Positions 47,178 to 59,808 of a DNA stretch of 64,000 bases are shown one piece after another. The notes beneath the pieces are model-generated. The model saw only the letters and a program-made list of their open reading frames with translations, had not been told where the DNA came from and did not search any database. The position numbers and the translations under genes were made by a program. The stretch spans positions 1 to 64,000 of the forward strand of contig NZ_CADESW010000010.1 of assembly GCF_902830275.1 (NCBI RefSeq). The letters run 5' to 3'. Source of the DNA: Burkholderia stagnalis (lineage in GTDB: Bacteria; Pseudomonadota; Gammaproteobacteria; Burkholderiales; Burkholderiaceae). The first letter of the stretch is position 1. The number at the start of each line of letters is the position of its first letter.

Positions 47178-48458
47178 TCATTTTCCTTGCAGCGGCGCGG
47201 CGAGCGGGTGTGCATCGCGCGCCTGGGGTTTGACGGACAGCGTGAGGATCACCGCGGCGACCAGCGCGGCGCTCATGAACGCGTACGACGCGACGGGCGA
47301 GCCGGTCGCGCCGTTCAGGTAGCCGACGAAATACGAGCCGACGAACGAGCCGAGCGCGCCCATGCTGTTGATCAGCGCCATCGCGCCGCCGGCGACGTTC
47401 TTCGGCAGCAGTTCCGGAACGATCGCGAAGAACGGCCCGTACGGCGCGTACATCGCGGCGCCTGCGACCACCAGCAGCGCATACGAGATCCAGAAGTGGC
47501 TCGAGCCGAGCGCATACGACGCCGCGAACGCGGCCGCGCCGATCAGCAGGAACGGCCACACGAAGCCGCGGCGCGAGCCGACCTTGTCGGACGCCCACGA
47601 CGCGGCGAGCATCGCGATCGTCGCGGCCAGGTACGGCAGCGCGGACAGCCAGCCGGTCGCGACCATGCCGAGCGCGGAGCCGTTCTTCACGATCGACGGC
47701 AGCCACAGCACGAAGCCGTACACGCCGATGCTCCAGCAGAAGTACTGCGCGCACAGCTTGATCACGGCCGGCGAGCGGAACGCCTCGCCGTAGTTGCGCA
47801 TCGGCTTGATCGCCGCCTGCTCGGCCGCGAGCGCCGCGTCGAGGTCGCGCTTTTCCTGCGCGGTGAGCCAGGTGGCCTGCGCGGGCTTGTCCTGCACCAG
47901 GAACCACCAGCACACGGCCCACAGGATCGCCGGCACGCCCTCGGCGACGAACATGTGGCGCCAGCCGAATTCATGCACCAGGTAGCCCGACACGACCGAC
48001 ATCCACAGCACCGTGACCGGGTTGCCGAGGATCAGGAACGTGTTCGCGCGCGAGCGCTCGTTCTTCGTGAACCAGTTGCTGATGTAGATCAGCATCGCCG
48101 GCATCACGGCCGCCTCGACGACGCCTAGCACGAAGCGGATCGCCATCAGCGAAGGGATGTTGCTGACCACGCCCGTGAGCGCCGCGCATGCGCCCCACAG
48201 GATGAGGCTGACGAACACCAGCTTCTTGACGCTGCGCCGTTCCGCGTAGATCGCGCCGGGGATCTGGAAGAAGAAGTAGCCGAGGAAGAACAGCGCGCCG
48301 ATCAGCGACGACAGGCCCTTGCTGATGCCGAGATCCTGGTTGATGCCCGCCGCCGCCGCGAACCCGTAGTTCGCGCGGTCGAGATAGGCGAGGCTGTAGG
48401 TGATGAAGACGATCGGCATGATCGTCCACCAGCGACGTGCGGCGAGATTGGCAGTCAT
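47178..48458 (-). CDS. kguT: 2-ketogluconate transporter (MFS, ACS family)
   Basis: 426-aa, 12-helix major facilitator protein. The N-terminus [27 protein letters not shown] and the loop [11 protein letters not shown] are typical of the anion:cation symporter subfamily that carries sugar acids. Context (kguK/kguE upstream, kguD downstream, PtxS) identifies 2-ketogluconate as the likely substrate. AGGAG lies before the ATG, just downstream of the tandem repeat array. Confidence 0.9.
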
Positions 48459-48473
48459 GGGTGTGTCTCCTGT

Positions 48474-48718
48474 GTCGACCGGAGTTAGCGCTTTAGCGCT
48501 TACTCCGGTCCCATGCTTTGCGGTCGACCGGAGTTGGCGCTTCAGCGCTTACTCCAGTCCCATGCTATGCGGTCGACCGAAGTTGGCGCTTCAGCGCTTA
48601 CTCCGGTCCCATGCTTTGCGATCGACCGAAGTTGGCGCTTTAGCACTTACTCCAGTCCCATGCTATGCGATCGACCGAAGTTGGCGCTTTAGCGCTTGCC
48701 CCGGTCCCACGCAAAACA
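48474..48718. repeat. Five 49-bp tandem repeats with internal palindromes
   Basis: Units begin at 48474, 48523, 48572, 48621 and 48670 with [GA]TCGACCG. Each contains GGAGTTAGCGC-type arms and complementary GCGCTTACTCC, making a hairpin of about 10 bp, then CCCATGCTTTGCG. Copies differ at a few bases, with some compensatory in the arms and some not. The array fills the kguK-kguT gap inside the operon. It may modulate mRNA stability or read-through, or be a dispersed Burkholderia intergenic repeat. Confidence 0.9.
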
Positions 48719-48765
48719 GTGCGTAATGATCGAAATGAGTTCGCGATTGTGCCGTGGACGGCATC

Positions 48766-49802: not shown

Positions 49803-50567
49803 TTATGCGGCCTCGAGCCACGCCACGCGCCGACGCGCATCGCCGGCCAGATCGGCGGCATCGAACGGAAACTCGATGCCGCGCGGCACGTCCCGCGGCA
49901 GCGCCGCCAGCACCGCGGCGACGAGCGGGTCGTGCGGCGCCGGCGCGGCCGCGAAACGGCGCGCGCCCTCGCCTTCGACGGCCTTGCAATGAATGTATTC
50001 GACATGCGGCGCAAGTGCCTGCGCGCACGCGAGCGGCGCTTCGCCCGGCCATTGCCAGTTGCCGATGTCGAACGTCATGCCGAGCGCGCGCGGCGCGCCG
50101 GCCGCGGCGAGCGCCGCGAACAGGTCGCGGAACTGCGCGAACGCGCCGCCCACCGCCAGTTGGCCGTTCTCGACCACCACGCGGGCGCGGGCGTCGCGGG
50201 ACAGCGCGACGATGTCGGCCGCATGCGCGTCGCCGGCAAAGCCGCCGAGCTGGAATTTCACGAAGCGCGCGCCGAGCGCGTCGGCTTCGGCGAGCGCGTC
50301 GCGCAGCGCGTCGGCGTCGAGCGCGCCGGTTTCGGTGTACAGCGTCGCGGGCGTCGAATACACCGACCAGATGCCGTGCGCCGCCAGGTGCGCGCCCAGT
50401 GCGGCCAGCGCGTCGCGTGCCGCGTCCGCGTCGGACGCGAACAGCTCGCGCCGCACCTCGAAGCCGGCTGCGCCCGCCTGCGCGGCGGTCGCGACGAATG
50501 CCCGGTGGCCCTCCTGTCGCACCCGGTCCATCCCGAATGCGCTCGCCACGATCACGATGTCTGCCAT
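49803..50567 (-). CDS. kguE: KguE, xylose-isomerase-like TIM-barrel protein
   Basis: 254-aa sugar-phosphate isomerase/epimerase-like protein, first gene of the kgu operon. TIM-barrel blocks: FGMDRVRQEGHRAFVATAA, WSVYSTPATLYTETGALD, ARFVKFQLGGFAGD, GMTFDIGNWQWPGEAPL with metal ligands. KguE is epimerase-like and its exact reaction is not settled. GAAGGG before the ATG at 50567; the PtxS-like operator is 23 bases upstream. Confidence 0.88.
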   Translation of the reverse strand: MADIVIVASAFGMDRVRQEGHRAFVATAAQAGAAGFEVRRELFASDADAARDALAALGAHLAAHGIWSVYSTPATLYTETGALDADALRDALAEADALGARFVKFQLGGFAGDAHAADIVALSRDARARVVVENGQLAVGGAFAQFRDLFAALAAAGAPRALGMTFDIGNWQWPGEAPLACAQALAPHVEYIHCKAVEGEGARRFAAAPAPHDPLVAAVLAALPRDVPRGIEFPFDAADLAGDARRRVAWLEAA

Positions 50568-50590
50568 GTTTGCCCTTCTATTGCCGGAAT

Positions 50591-50604
50591 TGGAACCGGT
50601 TCCA
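50591..50604. promoter_or_regulatory. PtxS operator
   Basis: Perfect 14-bp palindrome TGGAACCGGTTCCA, two symmetric changes from the Pseudomonas PtxS site TGAAACCGGTTTCA (recalled). Located 23 bases upstream of kguE, where a bound repressor would block the kgu promoter. Strongly supports regulation by the LacI-family protein at the other end of the cluster. Confidence 0.8.
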
Positions 50605-50705
50605 TCAATGTGAGACGGATGGTGCGCCTCGGGGTGGGCCGGCGCCATAGTGGAAATCCCTAGGAATCGGCCGGCCAGGGTTCGCCGCGAGGCAACCGGG
50701 CTGCA

Positions 50706-51899
50706 TCAGGACGCGTGGCGGCCGATCTCGTCGAGCCACGCGCCGTGCAGGCACCGCACTGCCCAGTCGATGTCGTCGTCGGTCGTCTCGACGCCGACCG
50801 ACAGCCGCACCGCGCCGGCGACACGCGCGGCATCGCCCCCCATCGCCGCGACGGCGCTCTCGCCCGCCATGCCGCCGACGACGCGCGCGGGCCCGGCCGA
50901 CGCGGCGAGCCGGTCGTCGAGCGCGGCCAGCAACGCGCGCGCGTTGCAGCCGGGAAAGGACACGTTCAGGGTGTTCGGCAGGCGCGCGTCCGGCGAGCCG
51001 TTCAGCAGCAGGCCCGGCACGCACTCGAACAGCGCGCGCGCCAGGCGGTCGCGCGCCGCGCGCATCGCCTGCGCGCGCCGCGACAATTGCGTATCCGCGA
51101 GCCGCGCCGCCGCGCCGAGGCCGACGATCAGCGGCACGCTTTCCGTGCCGGGGCGCAGCCCGAACTCCTTCGGCACGCCGTGCAGCAGCGGCACGAGCGG
51201 CAGCGCCGGATCGCGCACCAGCGCGCCGACGCCGGGCGGGCCGTAGAACTTGTGCCCCGACAGCGTCAGCATGTCGACGCCGAGCGCGTGCACGTCGACC
51301 GGCACCTTGCCGATGCTTTGCGACGCGTCGGTATGCACCCGCGCGCCGCATGCGCGGCTGCGCGCGGCGAACACGCCCAGCGGCTGCACGACGCCCGTTT
51401 CGTTGTTCGCGTGCGCGAGCGACACGAGCCGCGTCTGCGGCGTCAGGCATGCATCGAACGCGTCGATGCGCAGCGTGCCGTACCCGTCCACCGGCACGGT
51501 CGCGACGTCCCACCCGTGCGTGCGCAACGCGGCCGCCGCGTACTGGATCGACGGATGCTCGACCGCGCTCACGATCATCCGCCGCGCGGGCCCCGCGCGC
51601 GCGGCGTCCGACCACGCGAAGCCGGCGAGCGCCAGGTTGTTCGCTTCGGTCGCGCCGCTCGTGAACACGATCCACTCGGGCGTGACGCCGACCAGCGCCG
51701 CGACGGCCGCCCGCGCACCGTCGAGCGCGTCGCGCGCGAGCCGCCCCTGCCGGTGCGATGCCGACGGATTGCCGTACACGTCGCGCCAGTAAGGCGCCAT
51801 CGCGTCGATCACTTCCGGCGCGACCGGCGTGCGCGCATTGAAGTCGAGGTAGACGAACCGCTCGCCGGCGCCCGGCCTTGCCGCGTCGGCTCTGCTCAT
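50706..51899 (-). CDS. Class V PLP enzyme, cysteine-desulfurase-like without catalytic Cys
   Basis: 397-aa fold-type I PLP enzyme of the NifS/IscS family. The N-terminal YLDFNARTPVAPEV, FTSGATEANNLAL, SAVEHPSI, ANNETGVVQPL, HTDASQSIGKVPVDV and SGHKFYGPPGVGAL (PLP Lys217) are all present. The loop that holds the desulfurase cysteine (SSGSAC in IscS) reads LAASAGPARV (331-340) with no cysteine. It may therefore catalyse another reaction (lyase, epimerase, transaminase). Its ATG overlaps the stop of the upstream oxidase-like gene (ATGA), indicating co-translation in the candidate biosynthetic cluster. Confidence 0.85.
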   Translation of the reverse strand: MSRADAARPGAGERFVYLDFNARTPVAPEVIDAMAPYWRDVYGNPSASHRQGRLARDALDGARAAVAALVGVTPEWIVFTSGATEANNLALAGFAWSDAARAGPARRMIVSAVEHPSIQYAAAALRTHGWDVATVPVDGYGTLRIDAFDACLTPQTRLVSLAHANNETGVVQPLGVFAARSRACGARVHTDASQSIGKVPVDVHALGVDMLTLSGHKFYGPPGVGALVRDPALPLVPLLHGVPKEFGLRPGTESVPLIVGLGAAARLADTQLSRRAQAMRAARDRLARALFECVPGLLLNGSPDARLPNTLNVSFPGCNARALLAALDDRLAASAGPARVVGGMAGESAVAAMGGDAARVAGAVRLSVGVETTDDDIDWAVRCLHGAWLDEIGRHAS

Positions 51900-52903
51900 A
51901 GCGAGAAGAAGTCGACCTTCAGCCGCGGCACGTAATTCGACATGTCCGTGTAGTACTGGATCACCTGGTCGTGGAACTGGTCGAACGCGTGCTTGACGTC
52001 GTGCATATGGTTGATCGCCAGGTGCGCGGCGTCGGCCGGCACGTGTTGCGTGCGCGCGAGCGCCTGCTCCAGCAGGCCCGCATGGCCGGCGCCGACGTCG
52101 ATCCGCATGTGGCGCATCAGCCCGTCGAACACGTCCGCGTCGAGCCCGGCCGTGCGCGCGATCTCGCGCCACGCGCCGCGCGCGCCGGCCTCCTCGTCCG
52201 GGCTCGCCTCGATCAGCTTCAGGCAGCACAGGTAGCCGAGCGACGACGCGCGGCCGACCTCGCACAGCATGTTGACGAGCGACAGCGTGCCGATCACGGG
52301 ATGCGCGTCGCGGATCTGCTCGCGCGGGATGCCGAGCTTCTCGACCGACGCGGCGATCAGCCCGTGATGCGCATACTCGTCGGCCAGGTAGCCGCACAGC
52401 AGCTCGGCCGTCGCCTGCTCGCGGCAGTGCGCTATCGCGGCGCCGATGTGGCGCGGCGCGAGCCGCACGAAGTGATACGTCTCGAGCAGCAGGCCGGCGA
52501 TCAGGTCGCGGCTGGCCTCGCCGCGCTCGAGCATGCCGAACAGCCGGTGATAGCCGATCTGCGCGCGCCACATCCGGGTGCTGCGGTTCACCCGCTCGAG
52601 GAAATCCGCCACGGCAATCGTCGCGGCCGGCCGTTCGCGGCGCAGCAGGCCGAGCTCGCCCAGTTGCCCGACGATCGTCCGTACGCTGCCATACGACACG
52701 TCCGAGCGCTGCGCGATGTCCTCGAGCGTGTGCCGCCCGTCCAGGTAGCGCTTCATGCGCAGAAACGCGTCGCGCGTGCCCTGCACCTGCTCGAGCTCGA
52801 AGCGCTCGTCGCCCACGATCATCGCCAGCCGCTCGCCGGCCAGCGCCACGAGCGTGCAATGCCGCAGCCGCGGCCGCTCGCCGGTTTCCGTCGTCTCGCC
52901 CAT
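51896..52903 (-). CDS. Heme-oxygenase-like diiron oxidase, 335 aa (HDO 1)
   Basis: Helical protein of the heme-oxygenase-like/PqqC-TenA superfamily. Putative metal ligands: E176-x2-H179 in LADEYAHHG, and H265-x3-D269-x4-H274 in the last bundle helix (HMRIDVGAGH). Residues 15-90 form a separate segment (FLRMKRYLDGRHTLEDIAQ ... VGQLGELGLL) like a winged helix or PqqD-type peptide-binding domain. AGGAG sets the start. Divergent from the small-protein/oxidase operon and coupled to the PLP enzyme gene. Related enzymes oxidatively cleave or desaturate amino and fatty acids; substrate here unknown. Confidence 0.78.
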   Translation of the reverse strand: MGETTETGERPRLRHCTLVALAGERLAMIVGDERFELEQVQGTRDAFLRMKRYLDGRHTLEDIAQRSDVSYGSVRTIVGQLGELGLLRRERPAATIAVADFLERVNRSTRMWRAQIGYHRLFGMLERGEASRDLIAGLLLETYHFVRLAPRHIGAAIAHCREQATAELLCGYLADEYAHHGLIAASVEKLGIPREQIRDAHPVIGTLSLVNMLCEVGRASSLGYLCCLKLIEASPDEEAGARGAWREIARTAGLDADVFDGLMRHMRIDVGAGHAGLLEQALARTQHVPADAAHLAINHMHDVKHAFDQFHDQVIQYYTDMSNYVPRLKVDFFSL

Positions 52904-53252
52904 GTCCCCGTCTCCTGGTTCTTTCGAGCGTCCACCGATTCGTTTTCCGAAACGATCGCCGCGCGCGGTGATCCACGGAAAACAATCGCACATGCCATTA
53001 AATCGATCTTGAATCGCGCAAACGTTGTACTAGATTATCCCCAGGATTCCTGTAATTCAAGAAATCCGCAAATGCTTAAAATAACGTTCTCTTTTCCAAG
53101 AAAATAAATCGGGGCTCCATTCCATCGAATCACTCCACCGCATTTGAAGATCGGAGATGCCGCCGCTCCGGTGCCGCATGGCCGCGGCATGGCTGCGTGC
53201 CGCGCTAATGGCGGCCGGGCGCTTGCGCCCTTTTCCATCGTCGGAGGTTGCT
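52904..53252. other. Divergent control region of the oxidase cluster
   Basis: About 350 bases, AT-rich in the middle (52980-53110) compared with the flanking genes. Must contain promoters for both arms. A possible rightward promoter is listed separately; an operator could not be assigned and no dedicated regulator gene lies inside the cluster. Confidence 0.4.
53009..53036 (+). promoter_or_regulatory. Possible promoter of the small-protein/oxidase operon
   Basis: TTGAAT, 16 bases, TAGATT; implied 5' leader of about 210 bases before the 68-aa protein gene. Moderate match. Confidence 0.35.
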
Positions 53253-53459
53253 ATGAGTGAACCGCTTACTGTCATCGTGCCGCGAGGCACCAAGGTCGCC
53301 GTCAAGGAAGTCGACGCGCTGCACACCGTCGACCCGCGCGCCGGCGCCGATCGCCACGCGCTGATCGTCGGCGGCGCCGATCTGAAGGTGGCGATCGCGA
53401 AGCAGGCGGACGGCCTGCCGCTTTCCGCCCGCGCCGCGTTCATGACCATGTGCGGGTGA
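53253..53459 (+). CDS. Small protein, 68 aa, first gene of the oxidase operon (candidate precursor)
   Basis: No family recognised. Beta-like N-terminus (LTVIVPRGTKVAVKEVDA), a VGGADLKVAIAKQADG middle and a C-terminus RAAFMTMCG, in which the only cysteine is the penultimate residue. No signal peptide. GGAGG seven bases before the ATG is one of the best ribosome-binding sites in the region, so high expression is likely. Its place at the head of an operon of four oxidase-like enzymes makes it a candidate peptide substrate or carrier; this is inference. Confidence 0.65.
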   Translation: MSEPLTVIVPRGTKVAVKEVDALHTVDPRAGADRHALIVGGADLKVAIAKQADGLPLSARAAFMTMCG

Positions 53460-53603
53460 ATATCCGCCCATGAATCATCCGCACAACGGATAAAAGGAAA
53501 CAAGACCGACATTTTTATTTCGTTCCAGATTTCTCCGCAAATCCCCCAGCCCGATTATTCGAATCAGGCCGGACGCCCTTTCATTTTCAAAACGGTGATC
53601 GAC

Positions 53604-53783
53604 ATGGCAAATACGCAGCAGGCAACGGTTCATGAAGTGAAAAACGCCGAAACGGGCAAGAACGTGTTCGACGGCCACAAGGTGGATCTCTACATCAATA
53701 CGGGCACGCTCGGCGGCAAGCACTATCTTGTCACCGTGAACAAGCCCGACGGCACGCCGACGCTGATCGCGATCCACCTGTAA
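53604..53783 (+). CDS. Small protein, 59 aa, second gene of the oxidase operon
   Basis: No family recognised. Begins MANTQQATVHEVKNAETGK and ends KPDGTPTLIAIHL; predicted mostly beta-strand, no cysteine, no signal peptide. A weak GGTGA precedes the ATG. 144 bases separate it from the 68-aa gene and 76 from the first oxidase gene. It might be a second precursor, an RRE-like binding partner or a structural subunit. Confidence 0.6.
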   Translation: MANTQQATVHEVKNAETGKNVFDGHKVDLYINTGTLGGKHYLVTVNKPDGTPTLIAIHL

Positions 53784-53859
53784 TCGCCGCGGCACCGGTT
53801 CAGCCTGTTGCGGGGCGAGCCGCGCGCCCGCCCCGCGCGCCCTCTTCGGGAGTGTCATC

Positions 53860-54825
53860 ATGGAACGGATCGAATCGCCGGCGCCACGCCCGCGGCTGGT
53901 GGCGCCCGTCGCGCTGCGGCACGTCGACGCGCTGCCCGGCAGCCCGCACGCCGCCGTCGCGCTCGCGCGCACGCTCGACCAGTTCGACGGCCGCCACGAT
54001 CTCGACGAGATCGCGCGCGACGAGCCCGACCTGCCGCGCGCGCTGCTCGACGAACTGGTCGGCTCGCTCGACGAGGCCGGCCTGATCGACGACGACGCGC
54101 CGGTCGCGAGCCGCCCCGGCTCGGAAGTGATCCTCGAGATCGAGGATCTCGTCGAGCAGTACGCCGAGCAGACGCTGTACCGCAATCCGTTCTGGCGCGC
54201 GTGCCTCGACACGCGGGCGCCGGGCGACCTGCCCGAACGGCTCGCGATCGGCATGGTGATCGAGAACTGGCACTTCCTGTTCCGCGAAAGCTATTTCGAT
54301 GCGCCCGTGCTGTCCTACGTGCCGAGCACGCCGGTGCGGCTCACGCTCAACCGCTTCTTTTCCGAGGAGTACGGGCACGACGAGATCCTGCTGCGCGCGC
54401 TGAATTTCGCGGGGCTCACCCGCGCCGACATGCTCGATGCGATCCCGCTGCCCGAGACGATGGGGCTGTGCAACGCGCTCGCGTACTGGTCGCACAGCGA
54501 TCCGCTGTTCTTCTTCACCACGCTCGGCCTGCTCGAAGGCCAGGGCCTGCAGCACGACAGCTTCATCCAGGCGTGCGAGCGCGCGCAACTCCCCGACGGG
54601 CTCGTCGGCCCGCTCAAGACGCACGCGAACATCAACCTCAACGCCGCGCACGGCAGCCTGACGCGCGCGATCTTCCAGGACATCCCGGTGCTCGACGCCG
54701 CCACCGTCGCGCGCGTGAAGGCCCAGCTGCGGCTGTTCGTCGAGCTCTACGACGATTTCTACACGGCCGTCTGGCGCTACTACACCTCCGATGCGCCGCT
54801 GCTGCGGCGCGTGTCCGACCTGTGA
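53860..54825 (+). CDS. Heme-oxygenase-like diiron oxidase, 321 aa (HDO 2)
   Basis: Putative ligands E170/E169-H173 in FFSEEYGHDE and H255-x3-N259-x4-H264 in HANINLNAAH. Residues ~30-80 (ARTLDQFDGRHDLDEIA ... LVGSLDEAGLIDD) repeat the winged-helix/PqqD-like layout of HDO 1, followed by the all-helical bundle (NWHFLFRESYFDAPVLSYVP). The last residues before the stop (VWRYYTSDAPLLRRV) resemble the HDO 3 tail. Ten bases separate it from HDO 3. Reaction unknown; oxygen-dependent C-C or C-N bond chemistry is the family precedent. Confidence 0.78.
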   Translation: MERIESPAPRPRLVAPVALRHVDALPGSPHAAVALARTLDQFDGRHDLDEIARDEPDLPRALLDELVGSLDEAGLIDDDAPVASRPGSEVILEIEDLVEQYAEQTLYRNPFWRACLDTRAPGDLPERLAIGMVIENWHFLFRESYFDAPVLSYVPSTPVRLTLNRFFSEEYGHDEILLRALNFAGLTRADMLDAIPLPETMGLCNALAYWSHSDPLFFFTTLGLLEGQGLQHDSFIQACERAQLPDGLVGPLKTHANINLNAAHGSLTRAIFQDIPVLDAATVARVKAQLRLFVELYDDFYTAVWRYYTSDAPLLRRVSDL

Positions 54826-54835
54826 GGCGACCATC

Positions 54836-55831
54836 ATGGACAGCACGCTAGCGGCTCCCGCGATGCCGAAATTCCGCGGCATCGTCACCTCGCAGGTCAC
54901 GGATACCGGCGCCGTGCTGAGCGCCGGCGGCCGGCAGTGCGCGTTCCAGTTCGCGCCGGACGAGGCGAACGACGTCGCGCGGCTGATCGGCGACCTGCAC
55001 GTGGGCGGCCTGACGCCGCAGGAACTGGCGGCGCGCTCGCGCCGCATCGCCGACAAGATTCCGCCGCTGCTCGCCGATTTCAACGCGCTGCGCCTGCTGA
55101 TCGAATCGGACCCGCGCCGCGCCGCCGCCGCGACGAGCGGCGCGCAGCTCTACCGCGACATCCGCCGGATCGCGGATCGCACGGCCGCGCGCAGCGCGCG
55201 CTCGGCGTTCCTGCGCGCGCTGGTCGAGCAGCAGGCGACGCGCCGGCAACTGATCGGCTATGCGCTCGAGTATTACTGGATCGTGCGCGCGGCGCCGGGG
55301 CTGATCGGCCCCGCGCTCGGCTGGGCCGCCAGCGCCGAAGAGCGCGCGCTGCTGCAGGATTTCCTGAAATCGGAGCTCGGGCACGACCGGTTTCTCGCGG
55401 CGTCGCTGAAGGCGGTGGGACTCGCGGAGGCCGTCATCGAGCAGCACCAGCCGCTGCCCGCCACCTTTTCGCTCGCGGCCGCGCTCGGCGTGCACGCGCG
55501 CCAGCATCCGCTGTCGTTCAAGGCGAGCCTGTTCCTGTTCGAACGCGCGCAGCCCGCGTTCATCGACGCGTTCGACGCGCGCTGCGTCGCGCTCGGCCTG
55601 CCCGAAGCGTTCTACCGGCCGCTGCGCGCGCACGCCGACCTGAACGACACGTACCGCCACGAGGACATCTCGCGGCAGCTGATGGCGCTCGACGCCGCGA
55701 TCGATCCCGAGGCGTGCACGGTCACGAAACGCAACGTCTCGCTGATGGTCGAGACGCTGGTGCGCCAGGAGCACGCCATCCTCGCCTACTACGCCGACGA
55801 CAGCGCGCCGCTGCCGCGCATCTTCCATTGA
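54836..55831 (+). CDS. Heme-oxygenase-like diiron oxidase, 331 aa (HDO 3)
   Basis: Putative ligands E180-x2-H183 in FLKSELGHDR and H266-x3-N270-x4-H275 in HADLNDTYRH. The N-terminal ~90 residues (LIGDLHVGGLTPQELAARS ... LLADFNALRLLIES) again look like a winged-helix segment. GAGG precedes the ATG. The tail (ILAYYADDSAPLPRIF) parallels that of HDO 2, suggesting an ancient duplication. Sequence identity among the cluster members is otherwise low, so they are probably not redundant. Confidence 0.77.
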   Translation: MDSTLAAPAMPKFRGIVTSQVTDTGAVLSAGGRQCAFQFAPDEANDVARLIGDLHVGGLTPQELAARSRRIADKIPPLLADFNALRLLIESDPRRAAAATSGAQLYRDIRRIADRTAARSARSAFLRALVEQQATRRQLIGYALEYYWIVRAAPGLIGPALGWAASAEERALLQDFLKSELGHDRFLAASLKAVGLAEAVIEQHQPLPATFSLAAALGVHARQHPLSFKASLFLFERAQPAFIDAFDARCVALGLPEAFYRPLRAHADLNDTYRHEDISRQLMALDAAIDPEACTVTKRNVSLMVETLVRQEHAILAYYADDSAPLPRIFH

Positions 55832-55841
55832 GGGTCGCCAC

Positions 55842-57329
55842 ATGGAACTCTGGACGTTTCAGCGTTATCGGTCGCCGCGCCTGTTCGTCGACGCGATCCA
55901 CCACGAACCGGGCTCGGCGCTCGTCAGCCTGCGCGCGGGCGCGCACGAATACCGGCTGGCGTTCGACGCCACCGACGCCGCCGATCAGATCGCCGCGCAG
56001 CTCGACGACCTGACCGACGCCGCATCGCCGCTGTGGTCGACGCTGCGCGACAGCGAGCCCGACTCCGGCTGGCATGCGCTCGGCACGTTTCTCGATACGC
56101 ATTCGCTGATCGGCGAGGCCGGCGACGCGGCCACCGATGCGCTCGCGGCACAGGCGGCGCGCATCGACACATGCATCGCGCAGACGGTCGCCGCGAGCCT
56201 CGCGGGGCTCGACTCCGCGCGGCGCGACGCGATCGCGCGCGACGCCGCGTCGCTGCGGCTGCACCTCGAACGGCCCGCATCCGGGCCCACGCTGTTCGAC
56301 GCGGACGACGACCCGTTCGACGCGCAGGCCGAACCCAACTTCCATCTCGCGCTGCTGCGCATCGAGTTCGAATACTTCCGCCGCGCGGTGCCGCTCACGC
56401 TGGCGGCCGTCGACCTGATGCTCGACGCGTTCTCCGGCGCGCCCCGCGCAAGCGCGGCGCACGATGCGCGGTTCGACACGGCCGGGCTGTACGACGAGCA
56501 CGACCTGATGTCGCACCTGTGGCTCGTCGCGTCGAGCCTCGTCGCCGCGAGCGGCGACGACGCGCAGCGGCTGCCGTGCGCGGACCTGCCGCCCGTGTCG
56601 CTGTCGAACGGGCTCGAGTTCATGCGGCAGACCGAGCTGATCACGCGCGAGACGCTGAACCGCTGGGGCGAGAATCCGTACGTGAGCGCGGTCGATGCGC
56701 TGAACGGCGGCTACGCGCCGCTCGTCGCGGGCCCGTTCATCGAGCAGTACCACGTGACGCGGCGCTTCGTCGAGATCATCGCGCCGCTGCTGAGCATGCG
56801 GCTCAGCATCCCGCTGCGCGCGATGATGTTCCGCTACTACGGCGAGGAATACGGCCACGAGGCGCTCGAAAGCACGACCTGCGAGGCTCTCGGCGTCGCG
56901 CCCGGCCAGCTCGCGCGGATCGTGCCGCTGCCGCTGCACTTCGCGTTCGTCGACGCGCTCACGCTGCTCGCCGATGCCGACCCGGTGTCGTCGTTCGCCG
57001 CGATCATGGTCGTCGAGGGGATCTTCGGCGAGCCGCCGAAGATGTCGCTGCGCCTGATGGCCGCGGTCAAGGACAACGACGCGTTCCACAGCGTGTCCGG
57101 CGATCACGAGGAGTTGAACGAATCGCTGAACCACAACAGCATCTCGCGCGACATGTTCGAGCGGATCGCCGCGATCGGCCCGGCACGGCAGGCGCTCGCG
57201 ATGCGCCGCATCCTGTTCCTGCTCGAGCTGAACCATCGCGCATGGAGCGGCATCGCCGGGTTCTACGGCGCGCAATCCACGCTCGTGCTGCACGGCCCGT
57301 ACGGCCGGCTGCTCGACCCGCGCGGCTGA
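55842..57329 (+). CDS. Large heme-oxygenase-like protein, 495 aa (HDO 4)
   Basis: Longer member: residues 1-95 form a beta/winged-helix-like segment (IAAQLDDLTDAASPLWSTL ... FLDTHSLIGE), 100-300 are an extra helical region, and the C-terminal half is the oxidase-like bundle with E336-x2-H339 in YYGEEYGHEA and H422-x3-N426-x4-H431 in HEELNESLNH. The N-terminal half also contains a possible degenerate bundle (FHLALLRIEFEYFRR), so it may be a tandem fusion with one inactive half. Ten bases after HDO 3. Confidence 0.72.
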   Translation: MELWTFQRYRSPRLFVDAIHHEPGSALVSLRAGAHEYRLAFDATDAADQIAAQLDDLTDAASPLWSTLRDSEPDSGWHALGTFLDTHSLIGEAGDAATDALAAQAARIDTCIAQTVAASLAGLDSARRDAIARDAASLRLHLERPASGPTLFDADDDPFDAQAEPNFHLALLRIEFEYFRRAVPLTLAAVDLMLDAFSGAPRASAAHDARFDTAGLYDEHDLMSHLWLVASSLVAASGDDAQRLPCADLPPVSLSNGLEFMRQTELITRETLNRWGENPYVSAVDALNGGYAPLVAGPFIEQYHVTRRFVEIIAPLLSMRLSIPLRAMMFRYYGEEYGHEALESTTCEALGVAPGQLARIVPLPLHFAFVDALTLLADADPVSSFAAIMVVEGIFGEPPKMSLRLMAAVKDNDAFHSVSGDHEELNESLNHNSISRDMFERIAAIGPARQALAMRRILFLLELNHRAWSGIAGFYGAQSTLVLHGPYGRLLDPRG

Positions 57330-57366
57330 CGGCGCCCGGCCGCTTCACGTGCACGAGGAGGACCCC

Positions 57367-58863
57367 ATGAACGCACACTACGACTACATCGTCATCGGCT
57401 CCGGTTCGGCGGGCAGCATCGTCGCCGGGCGGCTCGCCGCTCATCCGTCGATCAAGGTGCTGCTGCTCGAGGCCGGGCCGCTCGCGTCGCATTACCCGGC
57501 GATCCGCGACCCGAACCAGATCAACTGCCTGTACGGCATCGAAGCGATTCACTGGGGCTACAAAAGCGTGCCGCAGACGCGCATGAACGATCGCGTGATG
57601 GACGTCTGGCGCGCGAAGGTGACGGGCGGCTGCACCGCGCACAACGACATGGTCTACGTGCGCGGCGCCCCCGCCGACTTCGACCAGTGGGCGAGCCAGT
57701 ACGGCTGCGTCGGCTGGCGCTACCAGGATGTCGCGCCGCACTTCGAGCAGGTCGAAAGCATGCTGCAGCCGACCACCACCACGCGCAACGCATTCGGCCA
57801 GGCGTTCGTGAGCGCGTGCGAGCAGCTCGGCCACCGCTTCAACCCGAACTACAACGACGGGCGCCCGATGGCCGGCGTGTCGCCGCTGCGCTCGACGATC
57901 GACGCGCGCTTCGAGCGCGTCACGAGCTACCAGCGCTACGTCGAGCCGCTGCTCGCGCGGCAGACGAACCTGACGCTGGCCGACGAATCGCTCGTCGAGC
58001 GGATCGAATTCAGCAGCACGCGGCGCGCGGCTGCCGTGTACTACATCCGCGGCGGCGAGCGCGTGCGCGCGGCGGCCAGCCGGGAAATCGTGCTGTGCGC
58101 CGGCGCCATCAACTCGCCGCAGATCCTGATGCGCTCCGGCATCGGCGACGCCGCGCAGCTGCGGCGGCTCGGCATCCCCGTGCAGGCGGACCTGCCGGGC
58201 GTCGGCGCGAACCTGATGGATGCGCTGATCTTCCAGGGCATCTGGACGTCGAAGCAGCCGATCCTCGACCAGCCCGTCAACGAGGGTTACGCGATCGTCT
58301 GGGCAAACGCGAACGCCGACGGCCAGCCCGCCAATGCGGCCGAGATGATGCGCGGGCGCTATACGTGCGGACAGTCGGAGCACGAGCTGCGCAGCTTCTA
58401 TTCGGTGACGGGCGACATGATGCGGCTGCAGAGCCGGGGCCGCGTCGCGCTGCGCTCGGCCGATCCGGCCGTCGCGCCGCTGATCGACATGAACTTCCTG
58501 TCGGCGCCGGGCGACTTCGAGCAGTGCGTGCAGGGCTTCGAGCTGATGCGCTCGCTCGGCAACGCGCCGGGGCTGTCGGCGTGGCGCGGCGAAGAACAGG
58601 CGCCCGGCCCGTCGGTACGCACGCCCGGCGAGATCCGCAACTGGATCCTGAAAAACGCCGGCTCGCTGAGCCACCCGGTCGGCACCTGCCGGATGGGCGT
58701 CGGCCACGACGCGGTGGTCGATCCGCAGCTGCGCGTGCGCGGGGTCGAGGGGCTGCGGGTGGTCGACGCGTCGATCATGCCGCGCATCACGTCCGGGCAC
58801 ACGCAGGGGCCGGCGCTGATGATCGGCGAGAAAGGCGCCGCGCTGGTGCTCGCGCACGCTTGA
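57367..58863 (+). CDS. GMC-family FAD oxidoreductase
   Basis: 498-aa glucose-methanol-choline oxidoreductase. FAD-binding YDYIVIGSGSAGSIVAGRLA at the N-terminus, VTGGCTAHNDMVYVRG in the flavin-attachment region, INSPQILMRSGIG signature, and the C-terminal catalytic SHPVGTCRMG ... RVVDASIMPRITSGH with the conserved His. It oxidises an alcohol. GGAGGA before the ATG. Last gene of the rightward oxidase operon, 37 bases after HDO 4, so it probably acts on the same product. Confidence 0.9.
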   Translation: MNAHYDYIVIGSGSAGSIVAGRLAAHPSIKVLLLEAGPLASHYPAIRDPNQINCLYGIEAIHWGYKSVPQTRMNDRVMDVWRAKVTGGCTAHNDMVYVRGAPADFDQWASQYGCVGWRYQDVAPHFEQVESMLQPTTTTRNAFGQAFVSACEQLGHRFNPNYNDGRPMAGVSPLRSTIDARFERVTSYQRYVEPLLARQTNLTLADESLVERIEFSSTRRAAAVYYIRGGERVRAAASREIVLCAGAINSPQILMRSGIGDAAQLRRLGIPVQADLPGVGANLMDALIFQGIWTSKQPILDQPVNEGYAIVWANANADGQPANAAEMMRGRYTCGQSEHELRSFYSVTGDMMRLQSRGRVALRSADPAVAPLIDMNFLSAPGDFEQCVQGFELMRSLGNAPGLSAWRGEEQAPGPSVRTPGEIRNWILKNAGSLSHPVGTCRMGVGHDAVVDPQLRVRGVEGLRVVDASIMPRITSGHTQGPALMIGEKGAALVLAHA

Positions 58864-58871
58864 CGGCGGGC

Positions 58872-58897
58872 GTGACGGCGGGCGCCCCGCCCGTCAC
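58872..58897. terminator. Hairpin between the GMC gene and the LysR gene
   Basis: GTGACGG ... CCGTCAC with an inner GGGCG/CGCCC region lies between convergent stops; imperfect and without a T-run. Confidence 0.35.
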
Positions 58898-59808
58898 CCG
58901 AGCGTCTGCGCGAGGCTCATCGCCAGAAACTGCGCGGCGAGCCGCGACGGCGCGGCGCCGTGCGGCACGAGGATCGAGAAGTGCCGCGTGAGCGGCGCGG
59001 GCGCGAGCGAGCGCATCGCGAGCGCCGCATCGTCGTGCCGCAGCGACATCGCCGACACGAAGCCGACGCCCATGCCCGCGCGCACCGCTTCCTTCACCGC
59101 CTCGACGCCCGCGATCTCGAGCGCGACGCGCATCGGCGCGCCCGCGCTCGCGAACGCGCGCTCGACGAGCTGGCGCACGCCCGAGCCGGCCTCGCGCAGC
59201 ACCAGCGGATGCGCGGCGAGCGCATCGAGCGTTACGCCGCCCCCATCGCCGCCTTGGCCGCCACCGCCCGCGCGCGCCGCCAGCGGGTGCCCGGCCGGCA
59301 TGATCGCGACGATCTCGTCCTCGTGCCAGCGATGCGCGGCCGTGCCGGGCGGCAGCGCCTCGCCCGGCGGCCCCTCGATCAGCGCGATGTCGAGCGACGG
59401 CAGCGCGGCGACCACCTCGGCGGTGTTGCCGCTCATCGTCTGGATCGCGACGCGCGGCGCCGTCGGCTGGAACGCGGCGATCAGGTACGGCAGCAGGTAG
59501 CTCGCCGGCGTCGTGCTCGCGCCGATCCGCAGCGTGCCGGCCTCCAGCCCGCGCACCGCATCGCGGAACGCGCGCGCCTGCGCATACGTGTCGCGCAGCG
59601 AAGTCGCGTAATGCGACAGCTGCTCGCCGATCGGCGTCAGGCGGATGCCGCGGCCGTCGCGCTGGTACAGCGGCTCGCCGAACTCGTCCTGCAGCAGGCG
59701 CAGCTGGCCGGATACCGCCGGCTGCGACAGGTGCAGCGCCAGCGCGGCGCGGCTGATGTTCAGGTGCTCGGCGACGGCCGCGAAAGTTATCAGTTGATCC
59801 GGGGTCAT
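58894..59808 (-). CDS. LysR-family regulator (YeiE-like)
   Basis: 304-aa LysR protein: winged helix-turn-helix (TFAAVAEHLNISRAALALHLSQPAVSGQLRLL) and a type 2 periplasmic-binding-like effector domain. A glycine-rich insertion (ARAGGGGQGGDGGG) interrupts the effector domain, probably a surface loop. It is divergent from a YeiH-like gene, the same arrangement as YeiE-YeiH in E. coli, so it most likely controls that transporter rather than the oxidase cluster. Confidence 0.9.
   Translation of the reverse strand: MTPDQLITFAAVAEHLNISRAALALHLSQPAVSGQLRLLQDEFGEPLYQRDGRGIRLTPIGEQLSHYATSLRDTYAQARAFRDAVRGLEAGTLRIGASTTPASYLLPYLIAAFQPTAPRVAIQTMSGNTAEVVAALPSLDIALIEGPPGEALPPGTAAHRWHEDEIVAIMPAGHPLAARAGGGGQGGDGGGVTLDALAAHPLVLREAGSGVRQLVERAFASAGAPMRVALEIAGVEAVKEAVRAGMGVGFVSAMSLRHDDAALAMRSLAPAPLTRHFSILVPHGAAPSRLAAQFLAMSLAQTLG

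What the first reader, a model, noticed from the sequence alone, without database searches (positions are those of the whole stretch)
50706..58863. Candidate undescribed biosynthetic cluster with four heme-oxygenase-like oxidases and two tiny proteins
Four distinct helical proteins (335, 321, 331, 495 aa) each carry an E-x2-H motif in a [DES]E[YL][GA]H context and an exact H-x3-[D/N]-x4-H signature in a late helix, the pattern of heme-oxygenase-like diiron oxidases. They are packed with a class V PLP enzyme, a GMC flavoprotein and two small proteins of 68 and 59 aa, in two divergent arms with overlapping or 10-base spacing. Four members of this oxidase superfamily in one small cluster is unusual. 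I know of no named pathway with this gene set.
Basis: partly seen in the sequence, partly recalled or inferred. Interest (0 to 1): 0.9.

Follow-up and report, generated by a model that had tools for sequence, protein, structure and literature searches.

The report
Iron-oxidase trio tailoring a tiny peptide
A rare, mobile group of bacterial genes appears to make a tiny peptide whose last two letters, histidine and leucine, are rebuilt by up to three related iron oxidases, which looks like an undescribed route to peptide natural products but has not been tested in the laboratory.

Summary
In detail: four heme-oxygenase-like (HDO) genes and two small ORFs are present.

An upstream ORF ending in an [A/P]-x-His-Leu-type motif lies at 45 of 48 loci (Pseudomonadota, Bacteroidota, one Rhodococcus), against 2 of 22,415 background ORF segments. 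The three exceptions, cyanobacterial, have other peptides; two show a double-glycine leader, the third is cut by its contig end.

Five of six metal ligands of MboA, a peptide-modifying HDO, are invariant in HDO3 and HDO4 and nearly so in HDO2; the sixth, Asp, is mostly Asn. An RRE-like N-terminal domain is supported for HDO2 only.

Best reading: a RiPP-type pathway in which HDO2-4 oxidise the precursor's C-terminal His-Leu and the GMC flavoprotein may finish a carbonyl. HDO1 and small A look like a Burkholderia addition. The class V PLP gene is not conserved and lacks the desulfurase cysteine.

My searches found no description of this gene set. Product, reaction order and structures are untested; the folding server stayed full. 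Interest 0.72.

The parts
53604..53783 (+). small B: 59-aa candidate RiPP precursor ending ...NKPDGTPTLIAIHL
   Evidence: Same-strand upstream ORF with a C-terminal [APSV]xHL motif at 45 of 48 loci vs 2 of 22,415 background ORF segments; dN/dS 0.05-0.37
53860..54825 (+). HDO2: RRE-like N-terminal domain + heme-oxygenase-like oxidase; ligand positions E170,H173,E226,H255,N259,H264
   Evidence: PF14518 30.9 bits; profile hit to MboA 9ypi E=4.6e-4; PqqD hhalign prob 86.6; ligand columns
54836..55831 (+). HDO3: oxidase with ligand positions E180,H183,E236,H266,N270,H275
   Evidence: All six invariant in 25 of 25 rows and in 3 of 3 cyanobacterial copies; profile hits CADD-type 8va9 E=7e-7, MboA E=0.003; below the Pfam cut-off
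55842..57329 (+). HDO4: long oxidase; ligand positions E336,H339,E392,H422,N426,H431 and Tyr332 at the spacing of MboA Tyr82
   Evidence: Tyr332 and five ligand positions invariant in 26 of 26; position 426 Asn in 23, Asp in 3; only weak profile hit 3dde E=0.034; below the Pfam cut-off
57349..58863 (+). GMC flavoprotein oxidoreductase, clade-specific partner
   Evidence: PF00732/PF05199; kept in L029 (cut by contig end), L030, L031, L032 = L074, L075 and L076
51896..52993 (-). HDO1: fourth oxidase with winged-helix N-terminal domain; E206-x2-H209, H295-x3-D299-x4-H304
   Evidence: PF14518 36.0 bits, HTH_NPRL3 27.3 bits against a cut-off of 27.2; motif positions in the window copy; matches of at least 91% identity in 4 of 398 family genomes, own included, and 23-26% matches in three more
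53253..53459 (+). small A: 68-aa protein ending AAFMTMCG; candidate second precursor, paired with HDO1
   Evidence: Found in L032 = L074, L075 and L076 and in none of the other 42 loci of that search (L029-L071, L074-L076); dN/dS 0.08-0.11; homology to small B not supported (hhalign 0.5%)
50706..51899 (-). Class V PLP enzyme, NifS/IscS-like without catalytic Cys; probably NOT part of the conserved system
   Evidence: (Cys aligned with Arg)
50649..58893 (.). Whole insertion between a TIM-barrel gene (49803-50648) and a LysR gene (58894-59808)
   Evidence: Matches to these two genes lie 51-624 bp apart in 22 of 25 same-genus genomes that have both; parted by the cluster in own and G007; on separate contigs in G013

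Best explanation
This is a RiPP-type (ribosomally made, post-translationally modified peptide) cassette. SHOWN: small B and HDO2-4 form a conserved unit; the peptide C-terminus is conserved as [A/P]-x-His-Leu; HDO2-4 carry the MboA-type ligand spacing, mostly with Asn in place of Asp. INFERRED: the beta-strand-like stretch before the core docks on the RRE-like N-terminal domain of the HDOs; the free C-terminal carboxylate of Leu binds iron, as the substrate C-terminus does in MboA; HDO3 (the most constant enzyme) oxidises the C-terminal Leu; HDO2 acts on, or needs, His(-2), because in the cyanobacterial loci HDO2 has lost four ligands and His(-2) is Ile/Val while Leu and the HDO3 ligands stay; HDO4, with an invariant Tyr at the MboA Tyr82 spacing, carries out a further step such as desaturation. 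Here a GMC flavoprotein would turn an alcohol into a carbonyl; in other clades an aminotransferase or a TPP enzyme would handle the carbonyl, and GNAT, ATP-grasp ligase and transporters follow. HDO1 and small A look like a second, Burkholderia-only oxidase-peptide pair.
For: Peptide motif at 45 of 48 loci; HDO3 at 47 and HDO4 at 41 of 48 loci, in order and adjacent except in L048 and L064; MboA as best PDB hit of HDO2 and ligand match; Sphingomonas loci with the quartet but no shared further partner; RRE-like domain of HDO2 and relation of HDO1-3 and HDO3-4 N-terminal domains; in cyanobacteria, double-glycine-leader peptides (two of three loci; third cut by contig end) with ligand-poor HDO2 and intact HDO3; carbonyl-handling partner enzymes; HDO2 and HDO4 clades well supported and distances correlated, r=0.87-0.96.
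Against: No structure prediction could be run (21 attempts, all 'busy'). Only HDO2 matched PqqD; HDO1, HDO3 and HDO4 gave 0.7, 1.1 and 3.7%, little or no better than an unrelated control domain at 1.8%. HDO2 lacks the N-terminal domain in L067, L068 and L070. Asn at the sixth ligand may weaken metal binding. The HDO3 clade has support 0.03 only. No dedicated protease or reductase partner among the window genes scanned. The cyanobacterial correlation rests on three loci of one lineage.
Confidence: 0.7

Rival explanations
1. A version of the best reading with another fate: the peptide is a disposable scaffold and a small amino acid-like product is cut from its modified C-terminus, as in pearlins, PQQ or mycofactocin (these three recalled), rather than a mature peptide being secreted.
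For: Some precursors are very short (20-27 aa) and share mainly the tail; partner genes typical of small amino-acid products: GNAT, ATP-grasp L-amino-acid ligase, EamA/MFS transporters.
Against: No lantibiotic-dehydratase-like peptide-aminoacyl-tRNA ligase among the window genes and partner representatives scanned (most neighbours were not scanned); Sphingomonas loci share no downstream gene.
Confidence: 0.4
2. The small proteins are subunits, metallochaperones or activators of the HDOs, not substrates.
For: Small A and the long form of small B (59-70 aa) are conserved over much of their length; three of four HDOs have an unusual Asn ligand.
Against: Other versions are 20-27 aa and share mainly the C-terminal tail; MboA binds its substrate by a peptide C-terminus; two cyanobacterial versions have a double-glycine leader.
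Confidence: 0.12
3. Small B is a regulatory leader peptide (attenuator or arrest peptide) controlling the operon.
For: Short upstream ORF with a conserved C-terminus.
Against: No terminator-like hairpin found between 53783 and 53860 (window only); in TPP-enzyme clades the ORF lies about 1.8-2.0 kb upstream of HDO2; N-terminal parts are also conserved in the long form.
Confidence: 0.06
4. The HDOs act on a free small molecule and the peptide is incidental.
For: HDOs are described as specialising in amino acid substrates (PMC13185094 introduction).
Against: Peptide association at 45 of 48 loci across three phyla.
Confidence: 0.06

Closest known systems
Mangotoxin MboA (HDO acetylenase; PDB 9YPI/9YPL/9YPM; PMC13185094)
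   Same: Same ligand spacing E-x2-H, E, H-x3-[D/N]-x4-H; acts on the C-terminal residue of a peptide whose carboxylate binds iron; HDO4 keeps a Tyr at the Tyr82 spacing
   Different: Its tripeptide is made by ATP-grasp ligases and it has a dedicated reductase, MboB; here the peptide is ribosomal, HDOs come in threes, have N-terminal domains and mostly Asn for Asp176
Thiovarsolins, VarO (PMC6511847)
   Same: A heme-oxygenase-like protein modifying a ribosomal peptide (passages)
   Different: A YcaO-TfuA system with repeat precursors and one HO-like protein; no YcaO among the genes scanned here
Daptides (PMC10036551)
   Same: C-terminal residue rebuilt by oxidation and a class III aminotransferase (passages); a partner aminotransferase from L045 hits NF041821 daptide_amino at 8.4e-46, below its cut-off
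   Different: C-terminal Thr, alcohol dehydrogenase plus DUF-RRE and methyltransferase; the window cluster itself has no class III aminotransferase
FVG gvg cluster (PMC8064604)
   Same: Includes ORFs of under 50 aa, listed as required in the abstract of PMC8067088 (search listing), to make a non-protein amino acid
   Different: Core of GvgA/B/C and a carbamoyltransferase; GvgA and GvgC sequences were not compared here
CADD-type p-aminobenzoate synthase (PDB 8VA9)
   Same: Best PDB sequence hit of the HDO3 profile, E=7e-7
   Different: A 240-residue chain without room for the extra N-terminal domain; self-sacrificing enzyme (abstract of PMC11965152 in a listing)

Membership tests
HDO superfamily (MboA-type) | 3 His + 3 Glu/Asp ligands | tested here: inconclusive
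   Five of six met: invariant in HDO3 (25 of 25) and HDO4 (26 of 26), 33-37 of 37 in HDO2; sixth is Asn in HDO2 (35 of 37), HDO3 (25 of 25), HDO4 (23 of 26), Asp in the window HDO1
HDO superfamily (MboA-type) | Sequence relation to HDO structures or Pfam PF14518 | tested here: met
   Two of four over the Pfam cut-off; profiles of HDO2 and HDO3 hit MboA 4.6e-4 and CADD-type 7e-7; HDO4 only 3dde at 0.034
HDO superfamily (MboA-type) | Seven-helix bundle fold with dimetal site | not tested
RiPP | Genetically encoded precursor with conserved core beside modifying enzymes | tested here: met
   45 of 48 loci; other peptides in the remaining 3, two with a GG leader
RiPP | RRE (PqqD-like) recognition domain (common, not universal) | tested here: inconclusive
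   HDO2 86.6% vs column-shuffle maximum 0.46%; HDO1, 3, 4 not matched directly; pairwise HDO1-2 94%, HDO1-3 81%, HDO2-3 96%, HDO3-4 93%, but HDO2-4 44% and HDO1-4 7%
RiPP | Modified peptide product | not testable with these tools
   Needs mass spectrometry
Daptide | C-terminal Thr, oxidative decarboxylase, aminotransferase, methyltransferase, DUF-RRE | tested here: not met
   C-terminus is His-Leu; no such gene set in the ten window proteins scanned
Thiovarsolin-type thioamide RiPP | YcaO-TfuA pair and repeat precursor | tested here: not met
   Not among the window genes or partner representatives scanned
Mangotoxin mbo cluster | ATP-grasp ligases MboC/MboD, reductase MboB | tested here: not met
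   Absent from the ten window proteins scanned
Cysteine desulfurase (PLP gene) | Catalytic Cys in the active-site loop (motif recalled) | tested here: not met
   Cys aligns with Arg; PLP Lys loop kept

The most novel reading that the evidence does not exclude
A RiPP class defined by a series of RRE-linked, Asn-variant diiron oxidases: HDO2 oxidises His(-2), HDO3 and HDO4 oxidise the C-terminal Leu of peptides as short as 20 residues to a carbonyl-bearing end group, which is then aminated, condensed, acylated or oxidised by clade-specific enzymes. The cassette has moved among proteobacteria, Bacteroidota, actinobacteria and, in a partly dead form, cyanobacteria.
Probability: 0.35. Interest if true: 0.87.

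Novelty: new variant of a known kind. Interest (0 to 1): 0.72.

Why it matters
In the papers I could see, VarO of thiovarsolins is the one experimentally studied heme-oxygenase-like enzyme in a RiPP pathway, and MboA is the HDO shown acting on a short peptide C-terminus. A cassette with three such enzymes and a conserved His-Leu end would give a compact, testable set (one 20-60 aa peptide, three enzymes) for C-H oxidation of peptide C-termini, and the Asn-for-Asp ligand change makes it useful for asking how HDO metal sites tune reactivity. It also shows how such systems can hide: the 27-aa Robbsia precursor is missing from the (admittedly incomplete) PLSDB gene table.

Tried and rejected
PLP as a conserved member: rejected. 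Small A as a paralogue of small B: hhalign 0.5%, not supported. HDO1 as part of the universal core: rejected; matches of at least 91% identity in 4 of 398 family genomes including own, three more at 23-26%; pieces of a broken HDO1 in Paraburkholderia atlantica L030 were matched apart and not joined. Broader sampling with the HDO3 profile at E<=1e-40 found no copy besides the own genome in 398 phylum and 369 class genomes; only up to five candidates per genome were scored, so this supports rarity without proving it. Viral contigs: no match. FVG gvg as the same cluster: not established; Gvg sequences were not compared. First PqqD comparison used some mis-oriented sequences and was redone; its HDO-to-HDO values do not depend on PqqD. 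The peptide regex was written after seeing many of these loci, so 45 of 48 is a description; the background count is the control. Peptide lengths depend on the start codon my script chose. Loci are not independent: L073 repeats L027, L032 and L074 are one genome, and several Paraburkholderia, Chromobacterium and Sphingomonas loci look like close kin. The gene calls sometimes chose antisense frames; HDO positions were therefore taken. The middle of the output was cut; the rows cited here were in view.
Full report
What is there. The eight ORFs are confirmed at the stated places. Pfam calls two of the four oxidases PF14518 above cut-off and two just below, and the own genome has nine PF14518 matches, four of them here. 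The stretch 50649-58893 is an insertion: matches to the flanking TIM-barrel and LysR genes lie 51-624 bp apart in 22 of 25 same-genus genomes that have both (41 genomes searched), are parted by the cluster in the own genome and in G007, and are on different contigs in G013. G021 carries the cluster on another contig while its TIM-LysR site is empty.

What travels together. A search of 150 relatives found the four-HDO set in 4, own included; a fifth, G006, had one weak HDO match only. In the three other Burkholderia copies (L074 = L032, L075, L076) HDO1, small A, small B, HDO2, HDO3, HDO4 and GMC are all kept; the PLP gene is in none. Among the same 150 relatives its best match is 53% identical; the five nearest show no HDO in the stretches fetched around them (about 8 kb on each side, except one that sits at a contig end). 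Its desulfurase Cys aligns with Arg. Dyella keeps small B, HDO2-4 and GMC without a close HDO1 or small A. Sphingomonas loci have the quartet with no shared further partner: neighbours are a glycosyl hydrolase and a phosphoketolase in L033, a hydrolase and an ABC transporter in L034; the other four Sphingomonas loci were not scanned to the same depth.

Wider family. A scan of the genome collection with an HDO2 alignment gave 162 pattern matches and 45 confirmed loci; with the window, the Robbsia andropogonis plasmid and the Rhodococcus gordoniae plasmid that makes 48. HDO3 is at 47 of 48; the miss, L052, is a contig end. HDO4 is at 41 of 48; of the seven misses L052, L058 and L069 are short or end soon after HDO3, L065 is a Photorhabdus copy that looks degenerate, and L028, L071 and L072 show none in the sequence held. 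HDO4 is not directly behind HDO3 in L048 and L064. Tistrella has HDO2 and HDO3 fused. In a tree of 46 catalytic domains HDO1, HDO2, HDO3 and HDO4 each group together (support 1.0, 0.99, 0.03 and 1.0), and pairwise distances of HDO2, 3 and 4 correlate at r=0.87-0.96, as expected of an old cassette inherited as a block.

The peptide. Upstream of HDO2, on the same strand, 45 of 48 loci have an ORF with C-terminal [LIVMA]2-[APSV]-x-His-Leu; among 22,415 other ORF segments of the same loci 2 match. By the starts my script chose, precursors run from 20 aa in a Lysobacteraceae bin to about 70 aa; the tail is the shared part. In the TPP-enzyme clades (Tistrella, an alphaproteobacterial bin, Pedobacter, a Bacteroidetes bin) the ORF sits before the TPP gene, 1.8-2.0 kb from HDO2. 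The three cyanobacterial loci have different peptides with tails CAVVL, CPVIL and CAVIL; in L069 and L071 these carry a leader of the type LKIENLxxLxELNxEEVxxxQGG, while in L072 the ORF is cut by the contig start. The L069 peptide matches the Pfam double-glycine bacteriocin leader weakly (E=0.021, below cut-off), the L071 peptide does not. In those three loci HDO2 has lost His173, Glu226, His255 and His264, while HDO3 keeps all six positions in 3 of 3. Loss of HDO2 chemistry thus coincides with loss of His(-2), and Leu(-1) stays; this is one lineage and only a hint.

The oxidases. The best PDB match of the HDO2 profile is MboA (E=4.6e-4), of HDO3 a CADD-type enzyme (7e-7) with MboA at 0.003, of HDO4 only 3dde at 0.034. 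MboA's ligands, read in the crystallography section of PMC13185094, are Glu86, His89, Glu143, His172, Asp176, His181, with the substrate's C-terminal carboxylate on Fe1 and Tyr82 placed as a base. HDO2-4 reproduce the spacing, with Asn for Asp176 in HDO2 (35 of 37; Lys in 2), HDO3 (25 of 25) and HDO4 (23 of 26; Asp in 3); the window HDO1 has Asp. By spacing, the Tyr82 position is Tyr in HDO4 (26 of 26), Phe or Leu in HDO3 (25 of 25) and Phe in HDO2 (35 of 37). The N-terminal domain of HDO2 matches PqqD (hhalign 86.6%, 20 column shuffles at most 0.46%); HDO1, HDO3 and HDO4 did not match PqqD directly (0.7, 1.1, 3.7%; a control stretch of HDO3 gave 1.8%), but HDO1, HDO2 and HDO3 are related to one another and HDO3 to HDO4 there. 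HDO1's N-terminus narrowly passes a winged-helix Pfam model. The RRE assignment is therefore likely, not proven.

Partner enzymes. By clade they are GMC (window, L029-L032, L074-L076), class III aminotransferase (24 loci), GNAT (16), ATP-grasp ligase (8), MFS or EamA exporters, and an acetolactate-synthase-like TPP enzyme (4). The counts come from clusters of automatically called ORFs over 48 loci, the family names from one representative per cluster. NCBIfam places one aminotransferase (L045) near PigE and the daptide aminotransferase, below their cut-offs. These fit a carbonyl or alcohol made at the peptide end; in daptides a C-terminal Thr is oxidised to a ketone and transaminated (passages of PMC10036551). 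This is the basis for the proposed GMC role and is inference.

Literature. Searches in the open PMC library found one experimentally studied HO-like enzyme in a RiPP pathway, VarO (passages of PMC6511847). Only 4 papers hold 'heme oxygenase', 'RiPP' and 'precursor peptide' together; the other three I saw as listings only. The HDO review PMC13108848 (passages) mentions ribosomal peptide modification citing that same paper, and two RRE papers (PMC12710340, PMC7470986; term search only) do not mention heme oxygenase. Of PMC13185094 I read the introduction, the first part of the results, the crystallography section and passages; of PMC8064604 the abstract and passages; of PMC13174530 passages. No paper describing this gene set appeared in those searches; most subscription journals are not covered.

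Limits. No structure could be predicted, no product is known, reaction order is inferred, and loci include close relatives. Confidence that small B is a substrate of the HDOs is about 0.7; for the detailed division of labour about 0.35.

Noticed in passing
L071:9434-9694, L069:2836-3120, L072:1-219: Cyanobacterial peptides (double-glycine leader in the first two, third cut by contig start) beside a ligand-poor HDO2 and intact HDO3
   Followed up: partly
G000:C5:307746-325301 (outside the window): Three further PF14518 matches within 18 kb on another contig of the own genome
   Followed up: no
L111 (Enterobacter chuandaensis plasmid pE20191216): Another cluster with two annotated iron-containing redox enzymes, an M14 metallopeptidase and MFS transporters
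   Followed up: no
L065: Photorhabdus luminescens DSM 3368 copy looks degenerate: HDO2 metal His replaced by Tyr and no HDO4 found
   Followed up: partly
L073:9863-11938: HDO2 and HDO3 fused into one 691-aa ORF in Tistrella mobilis
   Followed up: partly
window 48400-48726: Intergenic stretch whose translation repeats units like DRSWRFS and TPVPC, apparently tandem DNA repeats
   Followed up: no
L100:7608-9410: A 600-aa HDO-like ORF in same-genus genome G006
   Followed up: no
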